From Stenotrophomonas sp. Marseille-Q4652 (GTDB lineage: Bacteria > Pseudomonadota > Gammaproteobacteria > Xanthomonadales > Xanthomonadaceae), in NCBI RefSeq assembly GCF_916618915.1, contig NZ_CAKAKE010000001.1, positions 744,001-808,000 of the forward strand: DNA of 64,000 bases. Direction: 5' to 3'. This document shows, piece after piece, positions 1 to 10,719 of the stretch. The first letter of the stretch is position 1, and each line of letters starts with the position of its first letter. The notes beneath the pieces were generated by a model that did not search any database, was not told where the DNA came from, and was given only the letters and a program-made list of their open reading frames with translations. The position numbers and the translations under genes were made by a program.

Positions 1-1654
1 TGTTGTCACTGTGCTTGAGCGCGCAGATCACAAACACGTTCGGGTTGTCCCATCCTTCACGCAGGGCAGAGTGCGAGAAGATGAAGCGCACGGGCTCTAC
101 GAACGACAGCAACCGCTCCTTGTCCTTCAGGATCAGGTCGTAGGCGTCTACGTCGTCAGAAAGTCCCGCGTTCTCGCCACGCGCTGCGACCGTTGGGTCG
201 GCCAGCCGTTTGCTCTTCTTGTCTATGGAGAAGTAGCCGCTGTGCGTTTTGTCGGCAGAAATCCCTTTGAGGTATTTGACGTACGGCGTCTCATCCAGCT
301 CCAGCACCTCGTTGAGGTAGAGCTGGTACTCCTCCTCGAAGATGCGGGCGTACTCACCTTTTTCGTCGGGCTGCGAATAGTCGCGGTACTTGACCACTTC
401 GTCGATGAAGTAAAGCGTGAGAACCTTCACACCCTGCCGGAACAGCGCCTGTTCCTTGTCGAAGTGCGCCTTGATTGCCTCGCGGATCTGTATGCGGCGC
501 AGCGCGGCCTCTGTCACATCACCGGTCGCATCCCCGACGGTGAGCTCAATGCCATTGGTGAAGCTCAGGGTGTCGGAGTTGGCGTTGATGTCGGCCACGA
601 CAAAGCCGTCCCGATACTGATCGAGTCCGTTCGACAGATCGAACAAGTTGTCGCCTTTTGAGAGCTTCCTGACCACCCGCTTGATGTTCCCGCCCGCCAA
701 TTTCTGCTCGAACTCCACGCGCGCCTCTGGCGGCTTCTTGCTCGAGATCTCGATGGACTGCAGGTACAGATAGCCCGCCGTGCCCGCCAGCCCCTTGACC
801 GCGATGCCGCGTACCGCGATCTTCTTCACCAGCTTCTGGTTGTAGGCGTCCAGCGCATCGAGGCGGTGAATCTTGTTGTGCGTAGTCTTGTGGGTTGCCG
901 AGTAGCGCAACACCATCAGCGCCTTGAACTCCTCCAGCGACTTCAGCGTCGCCGCGCCTTCCATCTTCTGCGGCTCATCCAGGATCAGGATGGGGCGGTT
1001 GGCGCTGATCACGTCGATGGGTTTGCGCGACTGGAAATCGTCCAGCACGTCATAAATGCGGCGGTTGTCGGCTCCGCGTGCGGCGAAGGCCTGCACGTTG
1101 ATCACCATCACATTGATGCCCGCGTCAGACGAGAAGCTCTCTAGGTGGTGCAGCTGCTTGGAGTTGTAGATGAAGAAACGCGCCTTCTTCTGGTAGGTCT
1201 CCAGGAAGTGGTCTGCAGTGATCTGCAGCGACTTGGCCACACCCTCGCGGATGGCAATGCTCGGCACCACGATGATGAACTTGCTCCAGCCGTACTGCTT
1301 GTTCAGCTCAAAAATCGTCTTGATGTAGCAATAGGTCTTGCCGGTGCCGGTTTCCATCTCGATGTCGAGATTGATCTTGGCCACCTTGGTCTTGACCAGC
1401 GTATCCGACAGGGGCAGGTTCTGTGCTCGTTGTACGTCGTGGATGTTGGCGAGCAGGGTCGAATGAGACAGCGAAAGGTCGGCGTTCTTGAAACCAGCCT
1501 CGGAAAACAGGCTTTCCATTCTGCTCTTTGCCTTGCCGGGGTCGATGCGATAACTCATGGCTTCAGCGGATGCCAAGGGCTGGCCCTTGAAGCATTCGAT
1601 GACCGCCTGTACCGCTGCTGTCTGGTAGGCCTGTGTTTTGAACTTCAGTTTCAT
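1..1654 (-). CDS. Type III restriction enzyme Res-like subunit (partial, C-terminus beyond left edge)
   Basis: This is the first 551 codons of a superfamily 2 helicase/nuclease that would translocate on and cleave unmodified DNA together with the upstream methyltransferase. The protein starts [13 protein letters not shown] Walker A motif (METGTGKTY) lies near residue 103, an ILILDEPQ Walker B box near residue 225, an S-A-T motif (RYSATH) shortly after, and the helicase motif EGWDNPNVF near residue 536. These are typical of type III Res subunits. The endonuclease domain, normally C-terminal, falls outside the window, so cleavage activity cannot be judged. The frame is open from 1654 to the window edge. 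It is the last visible gene of the operon, 22 bp after the PLD-fold gene. The family call is firm; function in this unusual operon is inferred. Confidence 0.9.
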
Positions 1655-1676
1655 GGTTTTTCCCTAGGACAGCGAA

Positions 1677-2726
1677 TCACAACTTCCAACGCCGAGCCGG
1701 TGGCACCTGTTTACACTCGGCGATCAGTACGTCGTATCGACTCGGATCGATTGCTCGACGGACCAGTTCGAAGTCGAATTTCCTGCGTCCCCGCTTGGTA
1801 AAGATGAGAACACAAGGGCGACTGCCGTATTCGAGTTCGCGGATCGACAGGCGAGCGGTAGCGTTACCGTTGAGCGTAAAAACTAGCGTGCGCGATTCCT
1901 GGGTGTCGACGTTATTCAAGTCGAGGTTGATGCTACTTCCGACCGGATTACCCAGCCCAAAGAATCTCCGCGCGGCGTCCAACGGTATCTGGACCTGACG
2001 TCCTTCCTCGCTTGTCTCTCTGGGCATGACTTCGAGGATCAATCTGGAGCCCCTCGGCTCGCCAGCCGCATTGGCCTTCGCATTGGACCTCTTGGCCGAA
2101 GCACCGCTTGTACGCTTCGACCAAGTGAAATCTCCGCCCAGGCCCGATGTCGCCCGTCGCTGTCCGTACTTTTCCTTCTCCTTCGCATAGCTCTTGATAA
2201 GCGCTGCCGTGACAGGATCGCTGGCCTTGTGGATTTCGTCATGCCATGTTTGCAGATGGGCATCGACATGGGCCAACGTCGTGACGGTTGCGAACTCGAT
2301 GTTATTCCTCAGACCGTCTTCGGTCAGGTTGTTGCTCCCTGCCAGAATGGTGCTACCAGCCTTGCCGACGAACCAGATGACCTTGGGATGGAAGATGCCT
2401 TTGTAGTGGCGCATCAAGCGAACTTCGATTCCTTCGTCCTGCATGGCTTCGAGGGCTGCTACGTCAGTCAGTGCGTGGTCAGTTCCGATGTAGGCCGTAA
2501 CAGCTCGGCCGTCCCGCGACTTGCGCCAATTTAGGATGCTCTTTCGAATCCGCTTCCATCCCGATTCTGTGGCTGCATAGAAGTACAGCCTCAGCTGAAG
2601 GGCCTGTTTGTCGGTTTCGCACATATGCTCGGCAGCAGCAAGAAAGTCGGTTACGGCCCATGCGGCGGCCCGCATGGTTGGTGCCGTCCGCGACAGGGCC
2701 GCCGATGTTTTAGGGACTTGGCTCAC
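1677..2726 (-). CDS. Phospholipase-D-fold nuclease-like protein of the restriction operon
   Basis: The 349-residue protein carries one PLD-like half site: His113 and Lys115 in GIFHPKVIWF, then SNNLT with Asn132/Asn133. This is the H-x-K...N arrangement of PLD/BfiI-type nucleases and DISARM DrmC-like proteins. A second HKD motif is not evident, so an active enzyme would probably be a dimer. The region after about residue 190 is not recognised. Its ATG overlaps the methyltransferase stop codon by four bases (ATGA at 2723-2726), so the two are probably translationally coupled. The res gene follows 22 bp downstream. It is not a standard part of a type III restriction-modification system. A role as an extra nuclease or DNA-binding component is inferred from fold and context. 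Confidence 0.8.
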   Translation of the reverse strand: MSQVPKTSAALSRTAPTMRAAAWAVTDFLAAAEHMCETDKQALQLRLYFYAATESGWKRIRKSILNWRKSRDGRAVTAYIGTDHALTDVAALEAMQDEGIEVRLMRHYKGIFHPKVIWFVGKAGSTILAGSNNLTEDGLRNNIEFATVTTLAHVDAHLQTWHDEIHKASDPVTAALIKSYAKEKEKYGQRRATSGLGGDFTWSKRTSGASAKRSNAKANAAGEPRGSRLILEVMPRETSEEGRQVQIPLDAARRFFGLGNPVGSSINLDLNNVDTQESRTLVFTLNGNATARLSIRELEYGSRPCVLIFTKRGRRKFDFELVRRAIDPSRYDVLIAECKQVPPARRWKL

Positions 2727-4651
2727 AGTACCTTGATCTCCGTACTTGGCGACAGCAGCCTGAAGATCTGCTCAATGTTGATCCTCACGGCACTGCTCCT
2801 TAGGCCGGAATCGCGACAGACAGCGCGCAGTGGCTTGTAGGCCGCTAGTTCCTTGATGAAAGACTCGTCGACGCCACCATCGTTGTCGAAGCAGCAGGCC
2901 AGCGCATCGCCATCGACGAAATAAACGTCCTTGCCCTGAATAATCTCTATCTCGATGGGCAGGGAGAGGTCCAGCCCCCAATCCAGCATCACCTGGAAAA
3001 GCAGGTCCTCGGGTGTGCGGTCGGGTTTGATGTTTTCGACGAGCAGGTCAAGATTTGCCTTATCCAGGGCGTCTGGTTGGTAGTAGACGTCGGCCATATT
3101 CGACGTATCGACCTTAAGCACACGGAAGCCAATGTCCCTGTCCCAGTCTTCATGGCACTGACTTCCCAGCGTCCGCTTACCGGCGCGGCGAATGCGTTCC
3201 TTGCTGATCTCTGCAATTGTTTGGTAACCGCCAGTAAATGCATCCGAGTTCGCCTCACACGGCTCGGGCAGCTGGACCATGATGAATCTACGGTTACCTC
3301 CATCTTCGGAATTCAGCTGAATCACGGCGTCGGCGGTTGAGCCCGATCCACAGAAGAAATCCATGACCAAGGCATCCTGATCATCGTACGTGACGGCACG
3401 GCACAGCACCCGAATCAAGCTTGAAGGCTTCGGGTTGTCGAACAGGGGTGCCCCGAAAAGGCTTTCCAGCTCAGCGGTTCCATCTTCGTTAGTGCCAACT
3501 TGATACGTTTCTGGCGAAAGGAGGTTGTGCATTTTCTTGACCTCTCCGCCTGCCTTTACATGGTTAGGCCTGAACGGCGCCTTCGAAATGGTGATCGTCT
3601 CGCCAGCACGAACTATCTCGTCGAGCCGGCTCTGGCTATACCTGAATTCACCTTCCAGCCGGAAGGCGTCGACGTTGCGGTAATCGCTCACGACGACCTT
3701 GTCGAGCAGGCGGGTGACAATGTTTCCCTCGCTCATATCCTGAGGTTCGAAGATTGCATCTTTTGACGCGAATCGGACAGCTCCTGCAGGAAATATAAGC
3801 GTCCCCAAAGAGTTACCGGCGTTGTTGACTGGATACTTTTTCCCGGCCGTTGTGACATCGACCGAAAAAGGTGGGGCGAGAGATCGGTTCCGCGCTACGC
3901 ACACCACATACTCGAACATCGAGCCTACGTTAGCGTGTAGGAACGAAGGTTTCTTCTTGCGCTGGCGCAGGAAGGTAGTTACGAAGTTCTGTTCGCCAAA
4001 GACCTCCTTGGTCAGGCGCAGCAAATTATCGACCTCCTGTTCGCCTATGCTGATGAAGAGCAGGCCATCATCTGCTAGAAGGGTCCTAGCGAGCTTCAAT
4101 CGGGGATAGATCATCGATAGCCAGTCCGAATGGAACCGGCCATTGGTGTCAGGGTTGGCGATCAGCCGATTCCCCTTGACATCCTTCTGATTGGATCTCC
4201 GGAGAAAGTCCTCTGTGTTTTCGGCAAAGTCGTCCTCGTAAATGAAGTCGTTCCCTGTGTTATATGGGGGATCGATGTAGATCATCTTGACCTTGCCCAG
4301 ATACGTCTCCTGCAAGAGCTTCAACGCGTCGAGGTTGTCGCCTTCGATGAACAGGTTTTTGGTGGTATCAAAGTCCACGCTCTCATCGCGGCAAGGGCGC
4401 AGCGTTTTGGCAATGGGCGCGTTGGCCGTGAGCAAGGCTTCGCGTTTACCCGGCCAGTTCAGGTGGTAGCGCTCCTGCGGCCCTTCCACAATCGACTCGG
4501 CCAACTCTTGCCGCAACTGGTCAAAATCCACGGCTAACTTCACGCTGCCGTCCTCGCCCTTGGCTTCGGTGACGCAGCTCGGAAACAGATCACGAATACG
4601 GGCGATGTTGTCCTGCGTGAGATTGGGTGAATGCATTTTTAGCTTTTCCAT
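2723..4651 (-). CDS. Site-specific DNA adenine methyltransferase, type III Mod-like (beta class)
   Basis: The 642-residue protein would methylate adenine N6 in a short asymmetric site, protecting host DNA. The catalytic motif IV, DPPYNTGND, lies at residues 127-135. The SAM-binding motif I, DFFCGSGSTAD, lies near residue 430. The order IV-then-I with an intervening target-recognition region is the beta class used by type III Mod subunits. The region around residues 240-400, presumably target recognition, is visibly more AT-rich than the flanking genome, as expected for a horizontally exchanged specificity segment. The N-terminal MEKLKMHSPNLTQDN is typical of this family. It starts 39 bp after the DUF4391 gene and overlaps the PLD gene by four bases. 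The recognition sequence cannot be predicted. Confidence 0.92.
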   Translation of the reverse strand: MEKLKMHSPNLTQDNIARIRDLFPSCVTEAKGEDGSVKLAVDFDQLRQELAESIVEGPQERYHLNWPGKREALLTANAPIAKTLRPCRDESVDFDTTKNLFIEGDNLDALKLLQETYLGKVKMIYIDPPYNTGNDFIYEDDFAENTEDFLRRSNQKDVKGNRLIANPDTNGRFHSDWLSMIYPRLKLARTLLADDGLLFISIGEQEVDNLLRLTKEVFGEQNFVTTFLRQRKKKPSFLHANVGSMFEYVVCVARNRSLAPPFSVDVTTAGKKYPVNNAGNSLGTLIFPAGAVRFASKDAIFEPQDMSEGNIVTRLLDKVVVSDYRNVDAFRLEGEFRYSQSRLDEIVRAGETITISKAPFRPNHVKAGGEVKKMHNLLSPETYQVGTNEDGTAELESLFGAPLFDNPKPSSLIRVLCRAVTYDDQDALVMDFFCGSGSTADAVIQLNSEDGGNRRFIMVQLPEPCEANSDAFTGGYQTIAEISKERIRRAGKRTLGSQCHEDWDRDIGFRVLKVDTSNMADVYYQPDALDKANLDLLVENIKPDRTPEDLLFQVMLDWGLDLSLPIEIEIIQGKDVYFVDGDALACCFDNDGGVDESFIKELAAYKPLRAVCRDSGLRSSAVRINIEQIFRLLSPSTEIKVL

Positions 4652-4690
4652 GTTCTTTTCCTCTGGTCGCTGCGCTTCAGATATCAGGGT

Positions 4691-5389
4691 TCAGCGGCTC
4701 AATTGTTCAAGTTCAGATTTCAGTTGCCGCAAGGTCGCGTTGATCTCGACCTTGCGGTTAAATTGCTTTTCCTTAGCCAGTCTCGCCTGGGTCTTCTCGA
4801 CTTCGCGGCGCTTGTTTGCCACCTGCTCGATACGCGCAATCCAGTCGGGCAAGGCCTCCTGTGGACGTGCTGGCAGCGGCATTAAGCCTTGCAGCAGAAC
4901 GGAGTACAGGTGGGCCATGTCGAGGGCCACTGGCATAGCCGTACGGGCAGTTGCCGCAGGCATCCAGTCGCTGGTGAAGTAGCTGGACAGCACCCAGCGA
5001 CTGGCATCGGCTTCGCTCGGGCGCTTGTAAGCCGCCACGACCTGCGTTTTCGCCTGATCGCCGTGGCCTTGGTTCAGTTCAAACAGGATCGGGAACTGCA
5101 CCGCGCCATCAATGCAGCGGAGCACGTCTTCGTGTAGCTCGGTGGACTTGAGCTGGATGCTGAAGACCTGGATTTCCGGCACGCCGGGCCGCGCAGGCAG
5201 GTTGATCGTCTCCGGGGCGAGCTTGTACTGCCAGACGATCTGCTCGACCTGCTCTACGAACAGTTCCTTCAGCCGGGTGTTGGCCCCGCTGTGCTCATAG
5301 ATTTTGTTCTTGGGCAGAACGCGCCCGAAAGCAGCTTGCTTGGGGTAGGCGATCAGCACTGTTCTTTTTGTGGTCGCTCCTTGACTCAT
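4691..5389 (-). CDS. DUF4391 domain protein of the restriction operon
   Basis: This 232-residue protein of unknown function starts MSQGATTKRTVLIAYPKQ and ends in a charged, probably coiled-coil segment (about residues 190-232, rich in K, E, R and Q). The start at 5389 is chosen because its ATG overlaps the helicase stop codon by four bases (ATGA). I recognise it as DUF4391, a family I associate with SNF2-helicase and methyltransferase defence operons; no biochemical role is known to me. The helical C-terminus suggests a bridging or assembly role between helicase and Mod/Res, but that is speculation. Confidence 0.75.
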   Translation of the reverse strand: MSQGATTKRTVLIAYPKQAAFGRVLPKNKIYEHSGANTRLKELFVEQVEQIVWQYKLAPETINLPARPGVPEIQVFSIQLKSTELHEDVLRCIDGAVQFPILFELNQGHGDQAKTQVVAAYKRPSEADASRWVLSSYFTSDWMPAATARTAMPVALDMAHLYSVLLQGLMPLPARPQEALPDWIARIEQVANKRREVEKTQARLAKEKQFNRKVEINATLRQLKSELEQLSR

Positions 5390-8300
5390 CCAGCCTCCTG
5401 AATCACGAGGAAGGTGATCAGTTCGAAGTCGTCCAGCCCGGCGATGGTATTGACCAGCGCGGTGGTCTTGCCGCCGCTGAACAGGCTGTCCAGATCCTTC
5501 TCTTCCTTCACCTCGATCATGGAGCGAATGGTCTTGCCAAGCAGGTCCGAATACACCTGCATCTTGCGGCCATCGGCCGTTTCCTGATTGAAGCGCTGGC
5601 ACACGTCGACAAACGGCTTGTCCTGGCCTTTGCAGCAGGTGCGTACCAGATCAAGCAGGCGCTTGACCTCAGTGTGGTCGTGAATGACCTCGCCCTCGCG
5701 GTTGATGTAGACGAGGTAGTACGGGTGCAGGCGGTTGTGCTGGTTGAGGGTGATCCCGGCGTTCCGATTGCGCAGCGTGAAGATCGCGCCCGGCCGTAGG
5801 CCCATCTCGAGTCTGGCGGGAACCACTGCGTGCATCCCGTTAGGCACATTGCTCAGTTCGCCGTGGGCTTTGACGTAGTTGAGCAAATCCATCCGGAAGT
5901 CGTTGAGGCCCAGGTCGGTGATCGAGACACCGGTCTTCAAATCCTCCAGCTCGATGACTTCCTCCTGCAGGCGACGCAGTTGCTCCTTGCGGTACGACAC
6001 GTCGTTAGCCTGCGCAGACAGCACGTTGTCGTCACCTGTGGCGGTCACGTCGGCGATCATCATCCGGCTCTCGACGCGCTCTTTGAGGTTGATGTACTCG
6101 TCGAGCGAGATGTCGGGCCAGTAGTTGACCAGCTGGATGCTGCTATTGGGCGAGCCAATGCGATCAACCCGGCCAAAGCGCTGGATGATGCGCACCGGGT
6201 TCCAGTGGATGTCGTAGTTGATCAGGTAGTCGCAGTCCTGCAGGTTCTGGCCTTCGGAGATGCAATCGGTGCCGATCAGCAGATCCACCTCGTGCGGCTC
6301 GTCCGGCAGTACCACCGCCTTCTCTTTAGAACGAGGGGAAAACAGGGTGAGCAGCTCCTGGAAGTCATAGCTGCGCTTCTGAGTTTTGCTCTTGATGGTG
6401 GACTGCGGTGCCCCCTTGCCGGTGACCTTGGCCGTGTGGATGGCGAGCGTAGCCAGCAGCTCCGGCGCAAGGTTGGCGTACAGGTAATCAGCGGTGTCAG
6501 CAAAGGCTGTGAAGATCAGCACCTTCCCGTTCCCGGGGTTGATTGGGTTTGCAATCTTGCCGAGCAGTAGTGCTTTGAGGTGCTGCAACTTGGCGTCGTC
6601 CTGCGGCGTGATCTTGTTCATCGAAGCCAGCAAGGCATCGATGACCTGTAAGTCCACCTTCAGTTCGTGTTCCCAGGACGGCAAATCCATGTCGGCGAGG
6701 CTGATCTTGATCTTGCTGCCGATCTCGCCGCCCTCGTCGCCGGGCATTGGCAGCTCATCGTCCTCTGCATCCAGTCCTTCCAGCACTTCCGTGAGGTCGC
6801 CCACCGTGACCGCGCCGCCGGATTGATTGAACGCGGCGATCTTTGCGAGGGTGACTTCGTTGTTGGCCCGCAGCGATTGTAGTGTTAGCCGGAACGACTG
6901 CACCGAACTTTCAAGCCGTTTGAGCAGGTTGACCGTCATCAGGGCCTGCAGGCTCTTTTCGCGGTCGGCTTGGCGCAGCGTGCCCTTGCGGCCTACCTTG
7001 GTGTCGTAGATCTCCTCGTACTTTTTCAGACGGCTGGGCAGGATGTAGCTGATGGGCGCATACACGGCCAGCTTGAGCAGTGAGAGTTGCTCGAAAATTT
7101 CGTTGAAGCCCAACACGTCCGACCGCTCAGTCAACGGGCAGTGAAACGACAACGGTTTGCGGCGCTCCGGAAATTGACCGATGTCCTTGGTGTCGTAGAA
7201 GGTCTGGATGTGCTTACGCGAGCGTGCGATGGTGACGCTGTCGAGCAGCTCGAAGAAGTCGAAGTCCAGTGAGTCGAGGATCGCACGCGCGGTACGTTCT
7301 TCCGGGGGGAGCTTCGACCACGCATTGAAGGCTGCTTGTGCGCCTCGGAAAATCTCCTCAACGCTTCTGTCCGTGCGCAGTTTTTTTGTGAGGTTTTCGG
7401 AGTCGCCTTCGTAGGCCAGGGCCAGTTGGTTGCGCAAGTCGTTAAAGCGGTTGTTCACTGGCGTTGCCGACAACATCAGCACCTTGGTCTTGACCCCTTC
7501 TTGGATCACCTTGCGCATCAGCTTCTGGTAGCGGGTTTCCTTGTCCTTGTAGGCATCGTTGTTGCGGAAGTTGTGTGACTCATCGATGACGACGAGGTCG
7601 TAGTTGCCCCAGTTGATTCGGTTCAGCGGCGTACCGAAGGACTCGCCGCCGGTGCGGGACAGATCCGTGTGGCAGAGGACGTCGTAGTTGAACCGGTCGC
7701 GGGCGAAGATGTTGGTCTTAAGGTTGCGGTTGTAGTTCAGCCAGTTATCCGCCAGCTTCTTGGGGCAGAGCACCAGCACTGACCGGTTGCGCAGCTCGTA
7801 ATACTTGATGACGGCCAGTGCGGTGAAGGTCTTGCCCAAGCCGACGCTGTCGGCAAGGATGCAGCCGCTGTAGGTTTCCAGCTTGTTGATGATCCCGGTG
7901 GCAGCATCCTTCTGGTAGTTAAAGAGCTTGTTCCAGATCAGGGTGTCCTGGTAGCCGGTGCGGTCGTTGGGCAGGACGTCTTCGTCGATGTCGTCTAGGA
8001 ACTCGTTGAAGATGTTGTAGAGCATCAGGAAGTAGATGCTCTCGGGTGAGTTCTCTTGGTAGACCGAGGCGATGTGCTCGCAAATCTGCGCTGTCACGTC
8101 CTCGAGCTTTTCGGGGTCATTCCAGATCTGATCGAACAGGCTCAGGTACGTGGCAGCAAAGGGTGCCTCGTCCATCTTGTTGACGAGGTTGGATACCGCA
8201 TTGCCTTGCTGGTACCCGAGATCGACAGCCGTGAACCCGTGCAGGGGCATGTAAGCCGTGTCGGTACCACCAGCCTGCACGCAGGCGAACTGCTGCATCG

Positions 8301-8676
8301 GCGCTTTAGTGCGGTTGCTCTTGAATTTGGCCTTGCGCCGTATCCACTCTGCGCACTCCTTGGCCACCGCCCGCTGGGTCAGCTTGTTGCGCAGTTGGAT
8401 TTCAAACTCGCTGCCGTAGAGGCTGCGCTCCCGGTCGAGCTTGGGAATGTGGAATTCCTTTCGCTCTTTGCGAATCTTGTCGGTGACCTCGTTGCCAACA
8501 AAGGTGGGCGAGGTGAAGATGAAGTCCAGCTCGTCGATCTTTTCCAGCTCGGCTTTCAGCGCCTCGTAGGCGTACATCGAAAAGCACGAGGCCGCGACCT
8601 TCAGGCGCGCGCCTGGCCGGAGGGTCTTCTTGAGATCGTCGCCAAGCAACCGGCTGATGTTGTCGATCAGTTCCAT
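5386..8676 (-). CDS. SNF2-family helicase with PLD-like N-terminal region
   Basis: The 1096-residue ATPase would act as a DNA translocase in the defence complex. The N-terminal 200 residues resemble a catalytically degenerate PLD-like domain. The motor follows: Walker A ADSVGLGKT near residue 278, Walker B VVIDESHNF near 365, motif III LSATPVNN near 400, and motif VI QRFGRVDRIGSPN near 835. The long insertion between the two RecA lobes (about 450-700) is typical of this helicase group. I start it at 8676 (MELIDNISRLL), where ATG overlaps the stop of the helix-turn-helix gene by one base; an in-frame start 48 bp upstream is less likely. Such helicases accompany DISARM-like and other defence systems. 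The exact role here is inferred. Confidence 0.87.
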   Translation of the reverse strand: MELIDNISRLLGDDLKKTLRPGARLKVAASCFSMYAYEALKAELEKIDELDFIFTSPTFVGNEVTDKIRKERKEFHIPKLDRERSLYGSEFEIQLRNKLTQRAVAKECAEWIRRKAKFKSNRTKAPMQQFACVQAGGTDTAYMPLHGFTAVDLGYQQGNAVSNLVNKMDEAPFAATYLSLFDQIWNDPEKLEDVTAQICEHIASVYQENSPESIYFLMLYNIFNEFLDDIDEDVLPNDRTGYQDTLIWNKLFNYQKDAATGIINKLETYSGCILADSVGLGKTFTALAVIKYYELRNRSVLVLCPKKLADNWLNYNRNLKTNIFARDRFNYDVLCHTDLSRTGGESFGTPLNRINWGNYDLVVIDESHNFRNNDAYKDKETRYQKLMRKVIQEGVKTKVLMLSATPVNNRFNDLRNQLALAYEGDSENLTKKLRTDRSVEEIFRGAQAAFNAWSKLPPEERTARAILDSLDFDFFELLDSVTIARSRKHIQTFYDTKDIGQFPERRKPLSFHCPLTERSDVLGFNEIFEQLSLLKLAVYAPISYILPSRLKKYEEIYDTKVGRKGTLRQADREKSLQALMTVNLLKRLESSVQSFRLTLQSLRANNEVTLAKIAAFNQSGGAVTVGDLTEVLEGLDAEDDELPMPGDEGGEIGSKIKISLADMDLPSWEHELKVDLQVIDALLASMNKITPQDDAKLQHLKALLLGKIANPINPGNGKVLIFTAFADTADYLYANLAPELLATLAIHTAKVTGKGAPQSTIKSKTQKRSYDFQELLTLFSPRSKEKAVVLPDEPHEVDLLIGTDCISEGQNLQDCDYLINYDIHWNPVRIIQRFGRVDRIGSPNSSIQLVNYWPDISLDEYINLKERVESRMMIADVTATGDDNVLSAQANDVSYRKEQLRRLQEEVIELEDLKTGVSITDLGLNDFRMDLLNYVKAHGELSNVPNGMHAVVPARLEMGLRPGAIFTLRNRNAGITLNQHNRLHPYYLVYINREGEVIHDHTEVKRLLDLVRTCCKGQDKPFVDVCQRFNQETADGRKMQVYSDLLGKTIRSMIEVKEEKDLDSLFSGGKTTALVNTIAGLDDFELITFLVIQEAG

Positions 8677-8879
8677 CAGTTGCTTGCCCCCGAATCCTTG
8701 TTGGTCAGATTGGCGGCAATCCACTCATCCAGGTCGCTGCGGCGGAAGCGCCACGTGCCGCCCAGCTTGAAAGCGGGAAGCTTGCCTTCGGCCGCGAGGC
8801 GGTAGACGGTGCGCTTGCCAGCCTTCAAGTAGGCGGCCACCTCGTCCAGGGTCAGGATTTCACCTTCCGGATCTGCCAT
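8676..8879 (-). CDS. Small helix-turn-helix DNA-binding protein (excisionase/MerR-like fold)
   Basis: The 67-residue protein consists of one winged helix of the HTH_17 type: LTLDEVAAYLKAGKRTVYRLA, then FKLGGTWRFRRSDLDEWI. The family includes phage excisionases and operon-proximal regulators. It is the first gene of the minus-strand defence operon, overlaps the helicase start by one base (TGATG), and is the likely transcriptional controller. A candidate binding site, two TTGCCAA units with a 10-bp period, lies 31-47 bp upstream of its ATG. An alternative is an excisionase for the island, though no integrase lies in this window. Confidence 0.82.
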   Translation of the reverse strand: MADPEGEILTLDEVAAYLKAGKRTVYRLAAEGKLPAFKLGGTWRFRRSDLDEWIAANLTNKDSGASN

Positions 8880-9727: not shown

Positions 9728-10231
9728 TCAGGCGTCGCGGTTGTGGCGGCGCATCAGGCGCTGCTTGTCGCGTGCCCAGTCGCGGTCCTTAGCGGCGTCA
9801 CGCTTGTCGTGGGTCTGCTTGCCCTTGGCCAGCGCGATCTCGATCTTGATCTTGTTCTTGCTCCAGTACATCGCCGTGGGAACGATGGTGTAGCCATCGC
9901 GCTCGACCGCGCCGATCAGCTTGTCGATCTCGCTACGGTGGAGCAGCAGCTTGCGCTGGCGGCGGTCCTCGGGGACCACGTGGGTCGAGGCCTGGATCAA
10001 CGGGGTGATCTGCGCGCCGATCAGGTAGATCTCGCCATCCTTTACGTAGGCGTAGGCGTCGGTCATGTTGCCGCGGCCGGCACGGATGGCCTTGACCTCC
10101 CATCCCTGCAGCACCAGGCCAGCCTCGAAGCGCTGTTCCAGGTGGTACTCGTGGCGCGCACGCTTGTTCAGCGCGATGGTTTTACTGGCCGTCGCGCTCT
10201 TTGCTTTATCCTTGCCGGGTTTCTTGCTCAT
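9728..10231 (-). CDS. smpB: SsrA-binding protein SmpB
   Basis: SmpB binds tmRNA and delivers it to stalled ribosomes for trans-translation. The 167-residue product ([12 protein letters not shown]...) has the family core: [31 protein letters not shown], the ITPL segment, and the basic C-terminal tail with [14 protein letters not shown] that enters the decoding site. I choose the ATG at 10231; an in-frame upstream start would add 20 residues that look non-coding. It is divergent from ratA across 59 bp. Its closeness to the tmRNA-like remnant at 9033 supports ssrA having been a neighbour here. Confidence 0.97.
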
Positions 10232-10290
10232 CGCCGTATTGTCTCCGATTCCGGTCAATCCCGGATGATCCTTTCGCTTCCCGGTACCCA

Positions 10291-10719
10291 ATGCCCACCA
10301 TCAGCCGCAGCGCGCTGGTCGAACACTCCGCCTCGCGCATGTTCGACCTGGTCAATGACGTAGATGCCTATCCCCGCCGCTTCCGGTGGTGCGACAAGGC
10401 CACGATCGTGGAGCAGGGGGCAGACCGCCTCGTTGCCCGCCTTGACCTGGGGCTGGGCTCGTTCCGCACCTGGTTCATGACCGAGAACACCCTGGAGCGG
10501 CCGCGCAGCATTGATATGAAGCTGCGCGATGGCCCGTTCAGGAGCCTGCACGGCCGCTGGGAGTTCCATGCGCTGGCCGAGGATGCCTGCAAGGTGAGCC
10601 TGACGATGGAGTTCGAACCTACCTCGCGCCTGCTGGCGCCGGCGCTGGCGCTGGGCTTCCAGGGGCTGGCCGACCGCATGGTCAACGATTTCGTGCGCGT
10701 GGCTGACCAGGAGGCCTGA
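10291..10719 (+). CDS. ratA: RatA family ribosome-associated toxin / START-like protein
   Basis: This 142-residue START/polyketide-cyclase-fold protein has the family signatures [27 protein letters not shown] and [12 protein letters not shown]. coli RatA binds the 50S subunit and blocks 70S assembly; the family is also annotated as coenzyme-Q-binding (COQ10-like), and which role applies is not decidable from sequence. rnfH starts 5 bp after its stop, and smpB is divergent, the conserved smpB-ratA-rnfH neighbourhood of gammaproteobacteria. Confidence 0.9.

What the first reader, a model, noticed from the sequence alone, without database searches (positions are those of the whole stretch)
1..8879. 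Six-gene operon combining a type III R-M pair with an SNF2 helicase, DUF4391, PLD and HTH proteins
All six genes are on one strand and coupled: HTH-helicase overlap 1 bp, helicase-DUF4391 overlap 4 bp, DUF4391-Mod gap 39 bp, Mod-PLD overlap 4 bp, PLD-Res gap 22 bp. A canonical type III system needs only Mod and Res. Here two helicase motors, two PLD-like modules and DUF4391 are added. SNF2 helicase + methyltransferase + PLD resembles the component set of DISARM class 1, but the Mod/Res pair is type III and no DUF1998 (DrmB) gene is visible, so this could be a hybrid or distinct defence system. Whether this exact arrangement has been described could not be checked.
Basis: partly seen in the sequence, partly recalled or inferred. 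Interest (0 to 1): 0.85.

Follow-up and report, generated by a model that had tools for sequence, protein, structure and literature searches.

The report
Type III restriction operon with extra motor
This stretch of DNA carries a probable bacterial anti-virus system built on a known cut-and-protect enzyme pair, to which a conserved motor protein, an uncharacterised partner protein and, in this version, what looks like a second DNA-cutting enzyme matched to the same DNA-recognition part have been added.

Summary
In detail: all six genes, coordinates and overlaps check out, and the operon runs on beyond the window (Res complete at 1017 aa; a DUF262/GmrSD gene starts 16 bp later). It is not DISARM. 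It is a variety of Type III restriction-modification whose constant core is SNF2 motor - DUF4391 - Mod - Res, complete in 68 of 80 DUF4391 loci from genomes (11 of the other 12 are cut by contig ends), and seen on plasmids, viral contigs, in E. coli and in an archaeon. The motor's N-terminal domain models as a PLD fold but lacks GSxN in 94 of 94 sequences. DUF4391 models as an alpha/beta domain plus helical hairpin without a clear PDB match. HTH, PLD and DUF262 genes are optional. The separate PLD gene is a motif-intact, BfiI-like protein found only beside one Mod target-recognition domain (TRD): 6 of 6 PLD loci, one of them in the different, Eco86II-like class; the converse fails once (a plasmid with that TRD but no PLD). 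A second helicase in Type III systems was reported in 2021 for the sister Eco86II class; DUF4391, the altered PLD and the PLD-TRD link were not found in my literature searches. Function is untested.

The parts
8676..8879 (-). HTH_17 / excisionase-type small DNA-binding protein (67 aa), just over the NCBIfam MAD1 cut-off (82.5 vs 80 bits); optional member, probably the operon regulator (inferred)
   Evidence: found in a subset of loci
5386..8676 (-). SNF2-family motor (1096 aa). Residues about 1-207: PLD fold by model, without GSxN and, in the main clade, without HxK (probable pseudo-nuclease); residues about 246-930: SF2 motor with intact motifs
   Evidence: (94 sequences)
4691..5389 (-). DUF4391 protein (232 aa): alpha/beta domain plus C-terminal helical hairpin; constant partner of the motor
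   Evidence: neighbourhoods
2723..4651 (-). Type III Mod methyltransferase (642 aa); DPPYNT 127-132, FFCGSGST 432-439; target-recognition domain about residues 231-430
   Evidence: (MTase_III 1.1e-214)
3392..3946 (-). Target-recognition domain of Mod (residues 236-420), shared by all PLD-bearing loci and different in close relatives without PLD
1677..2726 (-). PLD-family protein (349 aa), BfiI-like N-terminal domain with H113, K115, G130-S131-N132, E144 invariant in the 25 aligned sequences; conserved C-terminal region (DNA-binding role inferred, not tested)
   Evidence: (2c1l BfiI, E 0.003)
1..1654 (-). Type III Res, N-terminal 551 aa; complete protein 1017 aa in L003 1601-4654 with [12 protein letters not shown] and PD...ExK motifs. 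The next gene, DUF262/GmrSD_N, lies outside the window (L002 16701-18584)

Best explanation
The locus is a composite Type III restriction-modification system. Shown by sequence: its constant core is SNF2 motor - DUF4391 - Mod - Res, and the PLD gene belongs with one particular Mod target-recognition domain (TRD). Inferred: (1) Mod reads a short asymmetric site and methylates one strand; Mod2Res1 cuts DNA with unmodified head-to-head sites, as in other Type III systems. (2) SNF2 and DUF4391, translationally coupled, form an ATP-driven motor complex that grips DNA through the nuclease-dead PLD-fold domain and works on or with Mod-Res at invading DNA (delivering or activating it, or clearing its path); DUF4391 is the adaptor. 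(3) The PLD protein is a second restriction nuclease, built like BfiI / R.NgoAVII, that recognises the same site as the Mod TRD, so that one methyl mark protects against two nucleases. Since Type III marks leave one daughter duplex unmarked after replication, this nuclease must be held in check by a two-site or motor requirement (as R.CglI needs its ATPase partner); the SNF2 motor or Mod-Res is the likely gatekeeper. Rough likelihoods: conserved four-gene system 0.95; dedicated partner with a dead PLD domain 0.75; PLD as specificity-matched nuclease 0.5; the motor step as stated 0.35.
Against: No function was tested. The sister-class motor of Eco86II was not needed for methylation and was not detected in a preparation that cut DNA in vitro (PMC8259958), so a motor-dependent cleavage step may be wrong. 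The PLD-TRD link rests on 6 loci, some of them close relatives (WIN/L011/L116; L070/L083), so about three independent cases; an Enterococcus faecium plasmid Mod with DEAD/DEAH helicase gene has the TRD at 56% without PLD. No DNA-binding domain was shown in the PLD C-terminal part. HxK in the SNF2 N-terminal domain was judged from alignment column counts; for a few of the divergent sequences it was not checked one by one, and some of these keep remnants such as GSSH (L088). The SNF2 N-terminal model is of medium confidence (pLDDT 71). L114 has Res and Mod ahead of SNF2-DUF4391; L095 has no Mod or Res in 9.6 kb downstream.
Confidence: 0.55

Rival explanations
1. SNF2-DUF4391 restrains rather than helps Res: it removes or resets Mod-Res complexes on host DNA (for instance after replication), so the system can be carried safely.
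For: Fits a motor with a dead nuclease, its position ahead of mod and res, and the report that the sister Eco86II cuts in vitro without detectable helicase (PMC8259958).
Against: Other Type III pairs do without it: 23 of 41 strong Res loci have no DUF4391 within 20 kb, although several of those contigs are short and four belong to genomes whose DUF4391 is on another contig.
Confidence: 0.25
2. SNF2-DUF4391 is an independent defence system that merely travels nested with a Type III pair.
For: The core spacing tolerates inserted genes (SIR2-like + HerA, DUF2130, UvrD-like, Schlafen/AlbA, YhcG); in L114 the two halves are in another order.
Against: The two halves are rarely seen apart: 75 of 80 and 24 of 27 DUF4391 loci have Mod downstream; of the 8 without, 5 end at contig edges, L114 has Mod on the other side, L067 and L095 lack it in the sequence held. 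The association spans bacteria and an archaeon.
Confidence: 0.15
3. The PLD gene is not a second nuclease for the same site but an effector or adaptor bound to this Mod TRD, or its link with the TRD is only shared descent of one mobile cassette.
For: About three independent cases only; PLD is rare (234 homologues at E<=0.001; 0 of 397 other phylum genomes; family-level in 1 of 300); the TRD occurs once without PLD.
Against: Active-site residues are invariant in 25 aligned sequences; the link holds across two Type III classes and in two gene orders.
Confidence: 0.35
4. Hybrid of DISARM with a Type III pair.
For: SNF2 helicase, methyltransferase and PLD protein are present; DrmD-type models give partial matches to the motor.
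Against: No DrmA or DUF1998/DrmB gene in the operon; SNF2 far below the DrmD cut-offs (137.5 vs 610; 90.8 vs 950); PLD vs DrmC only 1.2e-05.
Confidence: 0.02
5. Ordinary Type III R-M with unrelated passengers.
For: HTH, PLD and DUF262 are optional, and cargo genes vary.
Against: SNF2 and DUF4391 are nearly invariant and their genes mostly overlap by 4 bp.
Confidence: 0.05

Closest known systems
Eco86II / BspHIV class of Type III R-M with an extra SF2 helicase 5' of mod (PMC8259958)
   Same: SNF2-type motor gene directly ahead of mod and res; HTH gene ahead of it in the two plasmid relatives opened; close association reported in over 500 genomes (paper)
   Different: In NCTC86 the motor is 963 aa and shares only the motor part (26% over 238 aa) with this one; no N-terminal PLD-fold part, no DUF4391; Mod and Res are divergent
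Canonical Type III R-M (EcoP15I type)
   Same: Mod with DPPY and TRD; Res with SF2 motor and PD-ExK nuclease
   Different: Two extra constant genes and optional PLD, HTH, DUF262
PADLOC model C3a139 'HKD+Snf2'
   Same: SNF2 protein matches at 1.7e-121
   Different: The match starts at residue 196 of the 1112-aa ORF; the N-terminal HKD part did not align. What C3a139 stands for (Type III CRISPR accessory cluster) is recalled, not looked up
SauUSI (7clg)
   Same: PLD domain ahead of an SF2 motor; best fold match of the N-terminal domain
   Different: Here the PLD motifs are lost; recognition and cutting lie in separate Mod and Res proteins
CglI / NgoAVII and BfiI (PLD + B3 restriction enzymes; PMC4267653 passages)
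   Same: PLD-type protein next to a methyltransferase and an SF2 ATPase; 2c1l (BfiI) is the best PDB sequence hit of the PLD gene
   Different: Methyltransferase there is C5 type; no Type III Res; B3 domain not shown here
BREX-related Type-2 systems (PMC12839542 passages)
   Same: HKD + Swi2/Snf2 fusion; N6-MTase in the system
   Different: Carry DUF499 and DUF3780, neither found in this operon; HKD described as the effector there
MADS
   Same: HTH passes the MAD1 model (82.5 vs 80)
   Different: No other MADS gene among the matches shown

Membership tests
Type III restriction-modification | Mod: beta-type amino-methyltransferase with DPPY and a variable TRD | tested here: met
   MTase_III 1.1e-214; DPPY in 93 of 94 (one gapped), TRD highly variable
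Type III restriction-modification | Res: SF2 motor with C-terminal PD-(D/E)XK nuclease | tested here: met
   REase_III 6.6e-211 for the part in the window; PF19778 1.8e-30 for the whole protein; motif residues in 78-79 of 79
Type III restriction-modification | One-strand methylation of an asymmetric site and ATP-dependent two-site cleavage | not testable with these tools
   needs methylome and enzyme assays
Eco86II-like three-gene Type III class | Extra SF2 helicase gene 5' of mod | tested here: met
Eco86II-like three-gene Type III class | Helicase of the Eco86II family, directly followed by mod | tested here: not met
   only motor similarity (26% over 238 aa); DUF4391 between helicase and mod
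DISARM | DrmA helicase and DrmB (DUF1998) | tested here: not met
   no DUF1998 in the Pfam scans of the operon and the next gene, no gene whose best match is DrmA or DrmB
DISARM | DrmD SNF2 helicase over curated cut-off | tested here: not met
   137.5 vs 610 and 90.8 vs 950 bits
MADS | MAD1 HTH | tested here: met
   82.5 vs 80 bits; short domain, weakly diagnostic
MADS | Remaining MAD genes in the operon | tested here: not met
   no other MADS model among the rows shown (one search shows the best 25 of 50 and of 27 for SNF2 and Mod)
BREX-related Type-2 | DUF499 and DUF3780 | tested here: not met
   absent in the Pfam scan of the operon; definition from PMC12839542 passages
PLD-type restriction nuclease (BfiI / NgoAVII) | HxK and GSxN active site | tested here: met
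   invariant in the window protein and the 24 homologues aligned
[quoted passage not shown]
   no Pfam match over cut-off other than PLDc_2; no model made

The most novel reading that the evidence does not exclude
One Type III methyltransferase specificity guards two unlike nucleases, the ATP-dependent Res and a BfiI-like PLD enzyme; the TRD and the PLD gene move together as a specificity cassette between two classes of Type III system, and a conserved SNF2/pseudo-PLD motor with its DUF4391 adaptor gates cleavage, which would solve the problem that a one-strand mark leaves new daughter DNA unprotected against a single-site nuclease.
Probability: 0.35. Interest if true: 0.8.

Novelty: new variant of a known kind. 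Interest (0 to 1): 0.62.

Why it matters
PADLOC names only Mod and Res here as a restriction system and gives DUF4391 no match, yet 18 of 41 strong Type III Res loci in 398 phylum genomes lie beside DUF4391, so a large share of 'Type III' systems may involve proteins nobody assays. DUF4391 was named in one paper of the 5.39 million searched, once, in a table. The finding gives this domain a precise context and makes three things testable: what the extra motor does, why a nuclease fold was kept without its motifs, and whether one methyl mark can serve two nucleases.

Tried and rejected
DISARM, MADS, BREX-related Type-2 and PADLOC C3a139 as names: see membership test. HTH, PLD and DUF262 as core genes: rejected, they are optional. 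Link of other cargo to TRDs: the nine other cargo families compared spread over two or more TRD clusters each.
Full report
Observation. The window is bases 744001-808000 of contig C1 of a 3.35-Mb genome. Left of the window Res ends after 1017 aa, and a DUF262/GmrSD_N gene follows after 16 bp. That gene's frame ends where a transposase ORF (IS3 type by recall) begins on the other strand, next to the tmRNA gene; smpB lies on the other side of the operon (window 9728-10291, named from recall of its translation), so the operon sits in an island between smpB and the tmRNA gene. A 48-kb viral contig, L116, holds the whole seven-gene set (identities 100, 97, 90, 93, 99, 94 and 99.7% in gene order), with endolysin, tail and virion genes beyond it on the other strand: a phage or prophage carries this operon elsewhere.

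What is constant. I collected DUF4391 neighbourhoods in several ways. (a) A profile scan of GTDB species genomes gave 338 relatives, of which the best 80 were kept: 79 have SNF2 upstream, 75 Mod and 68 Res downstream, on one strand; only L067 lacks Mod for a reason other than a contig end, by the script's length criterion. The set is biased to close relatives. (b) In 398 genomes drawn from the phylum DUF4391 occurs in 23, at 25 places; 18 have a strong Res within 20 kb. Of the other seven, G402 has Res cut by the contig end, three have Mod before the contig ends, G331 ends at DUF4391, one (G300:C42) is a fragment, and G171 (L095) shows no Mod or Res in 9.6 kb. Counting the 27 loci fetched from these and the nearest relatives, 22 have SNF2, 24 Mod and 21 Res in the usual places, 18 all three; L114 has Res and Mod ahead of SNF2-DUF4391. 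(c) Plasmids: 39 records match, of which four were opened and all four show SNF2-DUF4391-Mod-Res: E. coli, Acinetobacter (with an IS inside Mod), an archaeon and Mycolicibacterium. E. coli CFT073 and NCTC11023 carry it on the chromosome; 10 of 5426 complete E. coli genomes hold the plasmid-type SNF2-DUF4391 pair at high identity. (d) Sixteen viral-contig loci were fetched; 14 have SNF2-DUF4391, and where the contig is long enough Mod and Res follow; two (L135, L136) have only a weak DUF4391 match. From the other side, 18 of 41 strong Res loci are linked to DUF4391. Of the 23 that are not, four lie in genomes whose DUF4391 is on another contig (G248, G150, G402, G331); of the remaining 19, two (L143, L156) have the sister-class motor ahead of Mod and the rest gave no SNF2 match, several of them on short contigs.

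DUF4391. Conserved residues include P16, K27, W53, L57, E72 and K122. The model is confident (pLDDT 94.9): an alpha/beta domain and a long helical hairpin. The hairpin accounts for nearly all structural matches. An adaptor role is inferred from the hairpin, the overlap with the motor gene and the lack of a catalytic motif known to me.

Optional cargo. Between DUF4391 and Mod, and between Mod and Res, other genes recur: DUF2130, a SIR2-like + HerA pair, UvrD-like helicase, Schlafen/AlbA_2, YhcG nuclease, RhuM, BRO-N (one representative of each family scanned), and in this window PLD. These resemble modules of other defence systems (recalled).

PLD follows the TRD. The 94 Mod sequences fall into 44 TRD clusters at 45% identity. 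The four PLD loci in that set make up exactly one cluster (81-96% identity), whereas the nine other recurrent cargo families compared sit beside two to ten clusters each. The close relative L008 shows the exchange in DNA: 92.7% identity from the HTH gene to about residue 180 of Mod, no match in the TRD, 72% in the Mod C-terminus, no PLD gene, 87.5% in Res. The strongest case is L141 (its contig has the length given for a Usitatibacter palustris PLD protein): its motor (44% to Eco86II), Mod and Res are of the other class, PLD (42%) stands before Mod instead of after it, and still its TRD is 58% identical to the window's over all 185 residues. The best Mod without PLD in the set of 90 scores 170 (L043) against 543. 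So in 6 of 6 loci PLD goes with this TRD (WIN, L011, L070, L083, L116, L141). The reverse is not strict: an E. faecium plasmid Mod followed by a DEAD/DEAH helicase gene has the TRD (56%) without a PLD gene; its neighbouring 447-aa ORF has no Pfam match. Nine plasmid records match the TRD in all: two of E. faecium at 56% and seven at 29-35%, of which one (Paenarthrobacter) was opened and shows no Mod-Res-PLD set. In viral contigs the TRD query found only the L116 contig.

Mechanism. PLD restriction enzymes such as BfiI and R.CglI/R.NgoAVII read short asymmetric sites, the same kind of site that a Type III Mod marks, and the R-proteins need an SF2 ATPase partner to cut (PMC4267653, passages). 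This fits a PLD enzyme reading the site of this TRD. There is a difficulty that is also informative: a Type III mark is on one strand only, so after replication one daughter has no mark at a site. Type III enzymes escape by demanding two inverted unmodified sites (PMC12707154, passages). A single-site PLD nuclease would attack the host, so if it is a nuclease for this site it must be gated, most simply by Mod-Res or by the SNF2 motor. That is inference.

Prior work. Murray and colleagues described an additional SF2 helicase-like gene 5' of mod in Eco86II and BspHIV, conserved in more than 500 genomes, not needed for methylation and not detected in a cutting preparation (PMC8259958; section 13 part 1, section 17 and passages read). 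I located what I take to be Eco86II in NCTC86 from gene content and order (NCTC86EC_RS24850-24860; the identification is mine). Its motor is a distant relative without the N-terminal PLD-fold part and without DUF4391 beside it. 248 of 5426 E. coli genomes have a blastn match to a sister-class motor, 29 of them over most of its length. The word DUF4391 occurs in one paper of the library, in an enrichment table.

Verdict. A real, widespread and coherent variety of Type III system; in part foreshadowed in print by the sister class; the DUF4391 partner, the altered PLD domain and above all the PLD-TRD coupling are the new points. All function is inferred.

Noticed in passing
L002 15112-18584 (left of the window): The operon's seventh gene (DUF262/GmrSD_N) ends at a transposase ORF that sits beside the tmRNA gene; a relative not ending at a transposase exists on viral contig L116.
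   Followed up: partly
L116 (IMGVR_UViG_3300017816_000077): The whole seven-gene operon is carried on a viral contig next to endolysin, tail and virion genes, so a phage or prophage carries this restriction system.
   Followed up: partly
L117 (E. coli plasmid pLAO18) and relatives: SNF2-DUF4391-Mod-Res stands between repA and a 5'-3' exonuclease gene on an E. coli plasmid of about 112 kb that looks like a phage-plasmid (recalled impression).
   Followed up: no
L030, L031, L036, L038, L039, L064: A SIR2-like gene and a HerA/DUF87 gene, a pair known as a defence system of its own (recalled), are inserted together between DUF4391 and Mod in six loci.
   Followed up: no
L054 10673-14526, L072 5165-9030, L155 4278-8160: Two Mod genes in tandem in one operon; in L054 and L072 their TRDs fall into different clusters, which would give one Res two specificities; the TRDs of L155 were not compared.
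   Followed up: no
L166 (E. coli CFT073) and L171 (E. coli NCTC86): The DUF4391 class and the Eco86II class lie in the same chromosomal neighbourhood, next to nanM, nanC and fimB.
   Followed up: no
L111 (G057, same genus): In a divergent member a DUF262-like gene lies between SNF2 and DUF4391.
   Followed up: no
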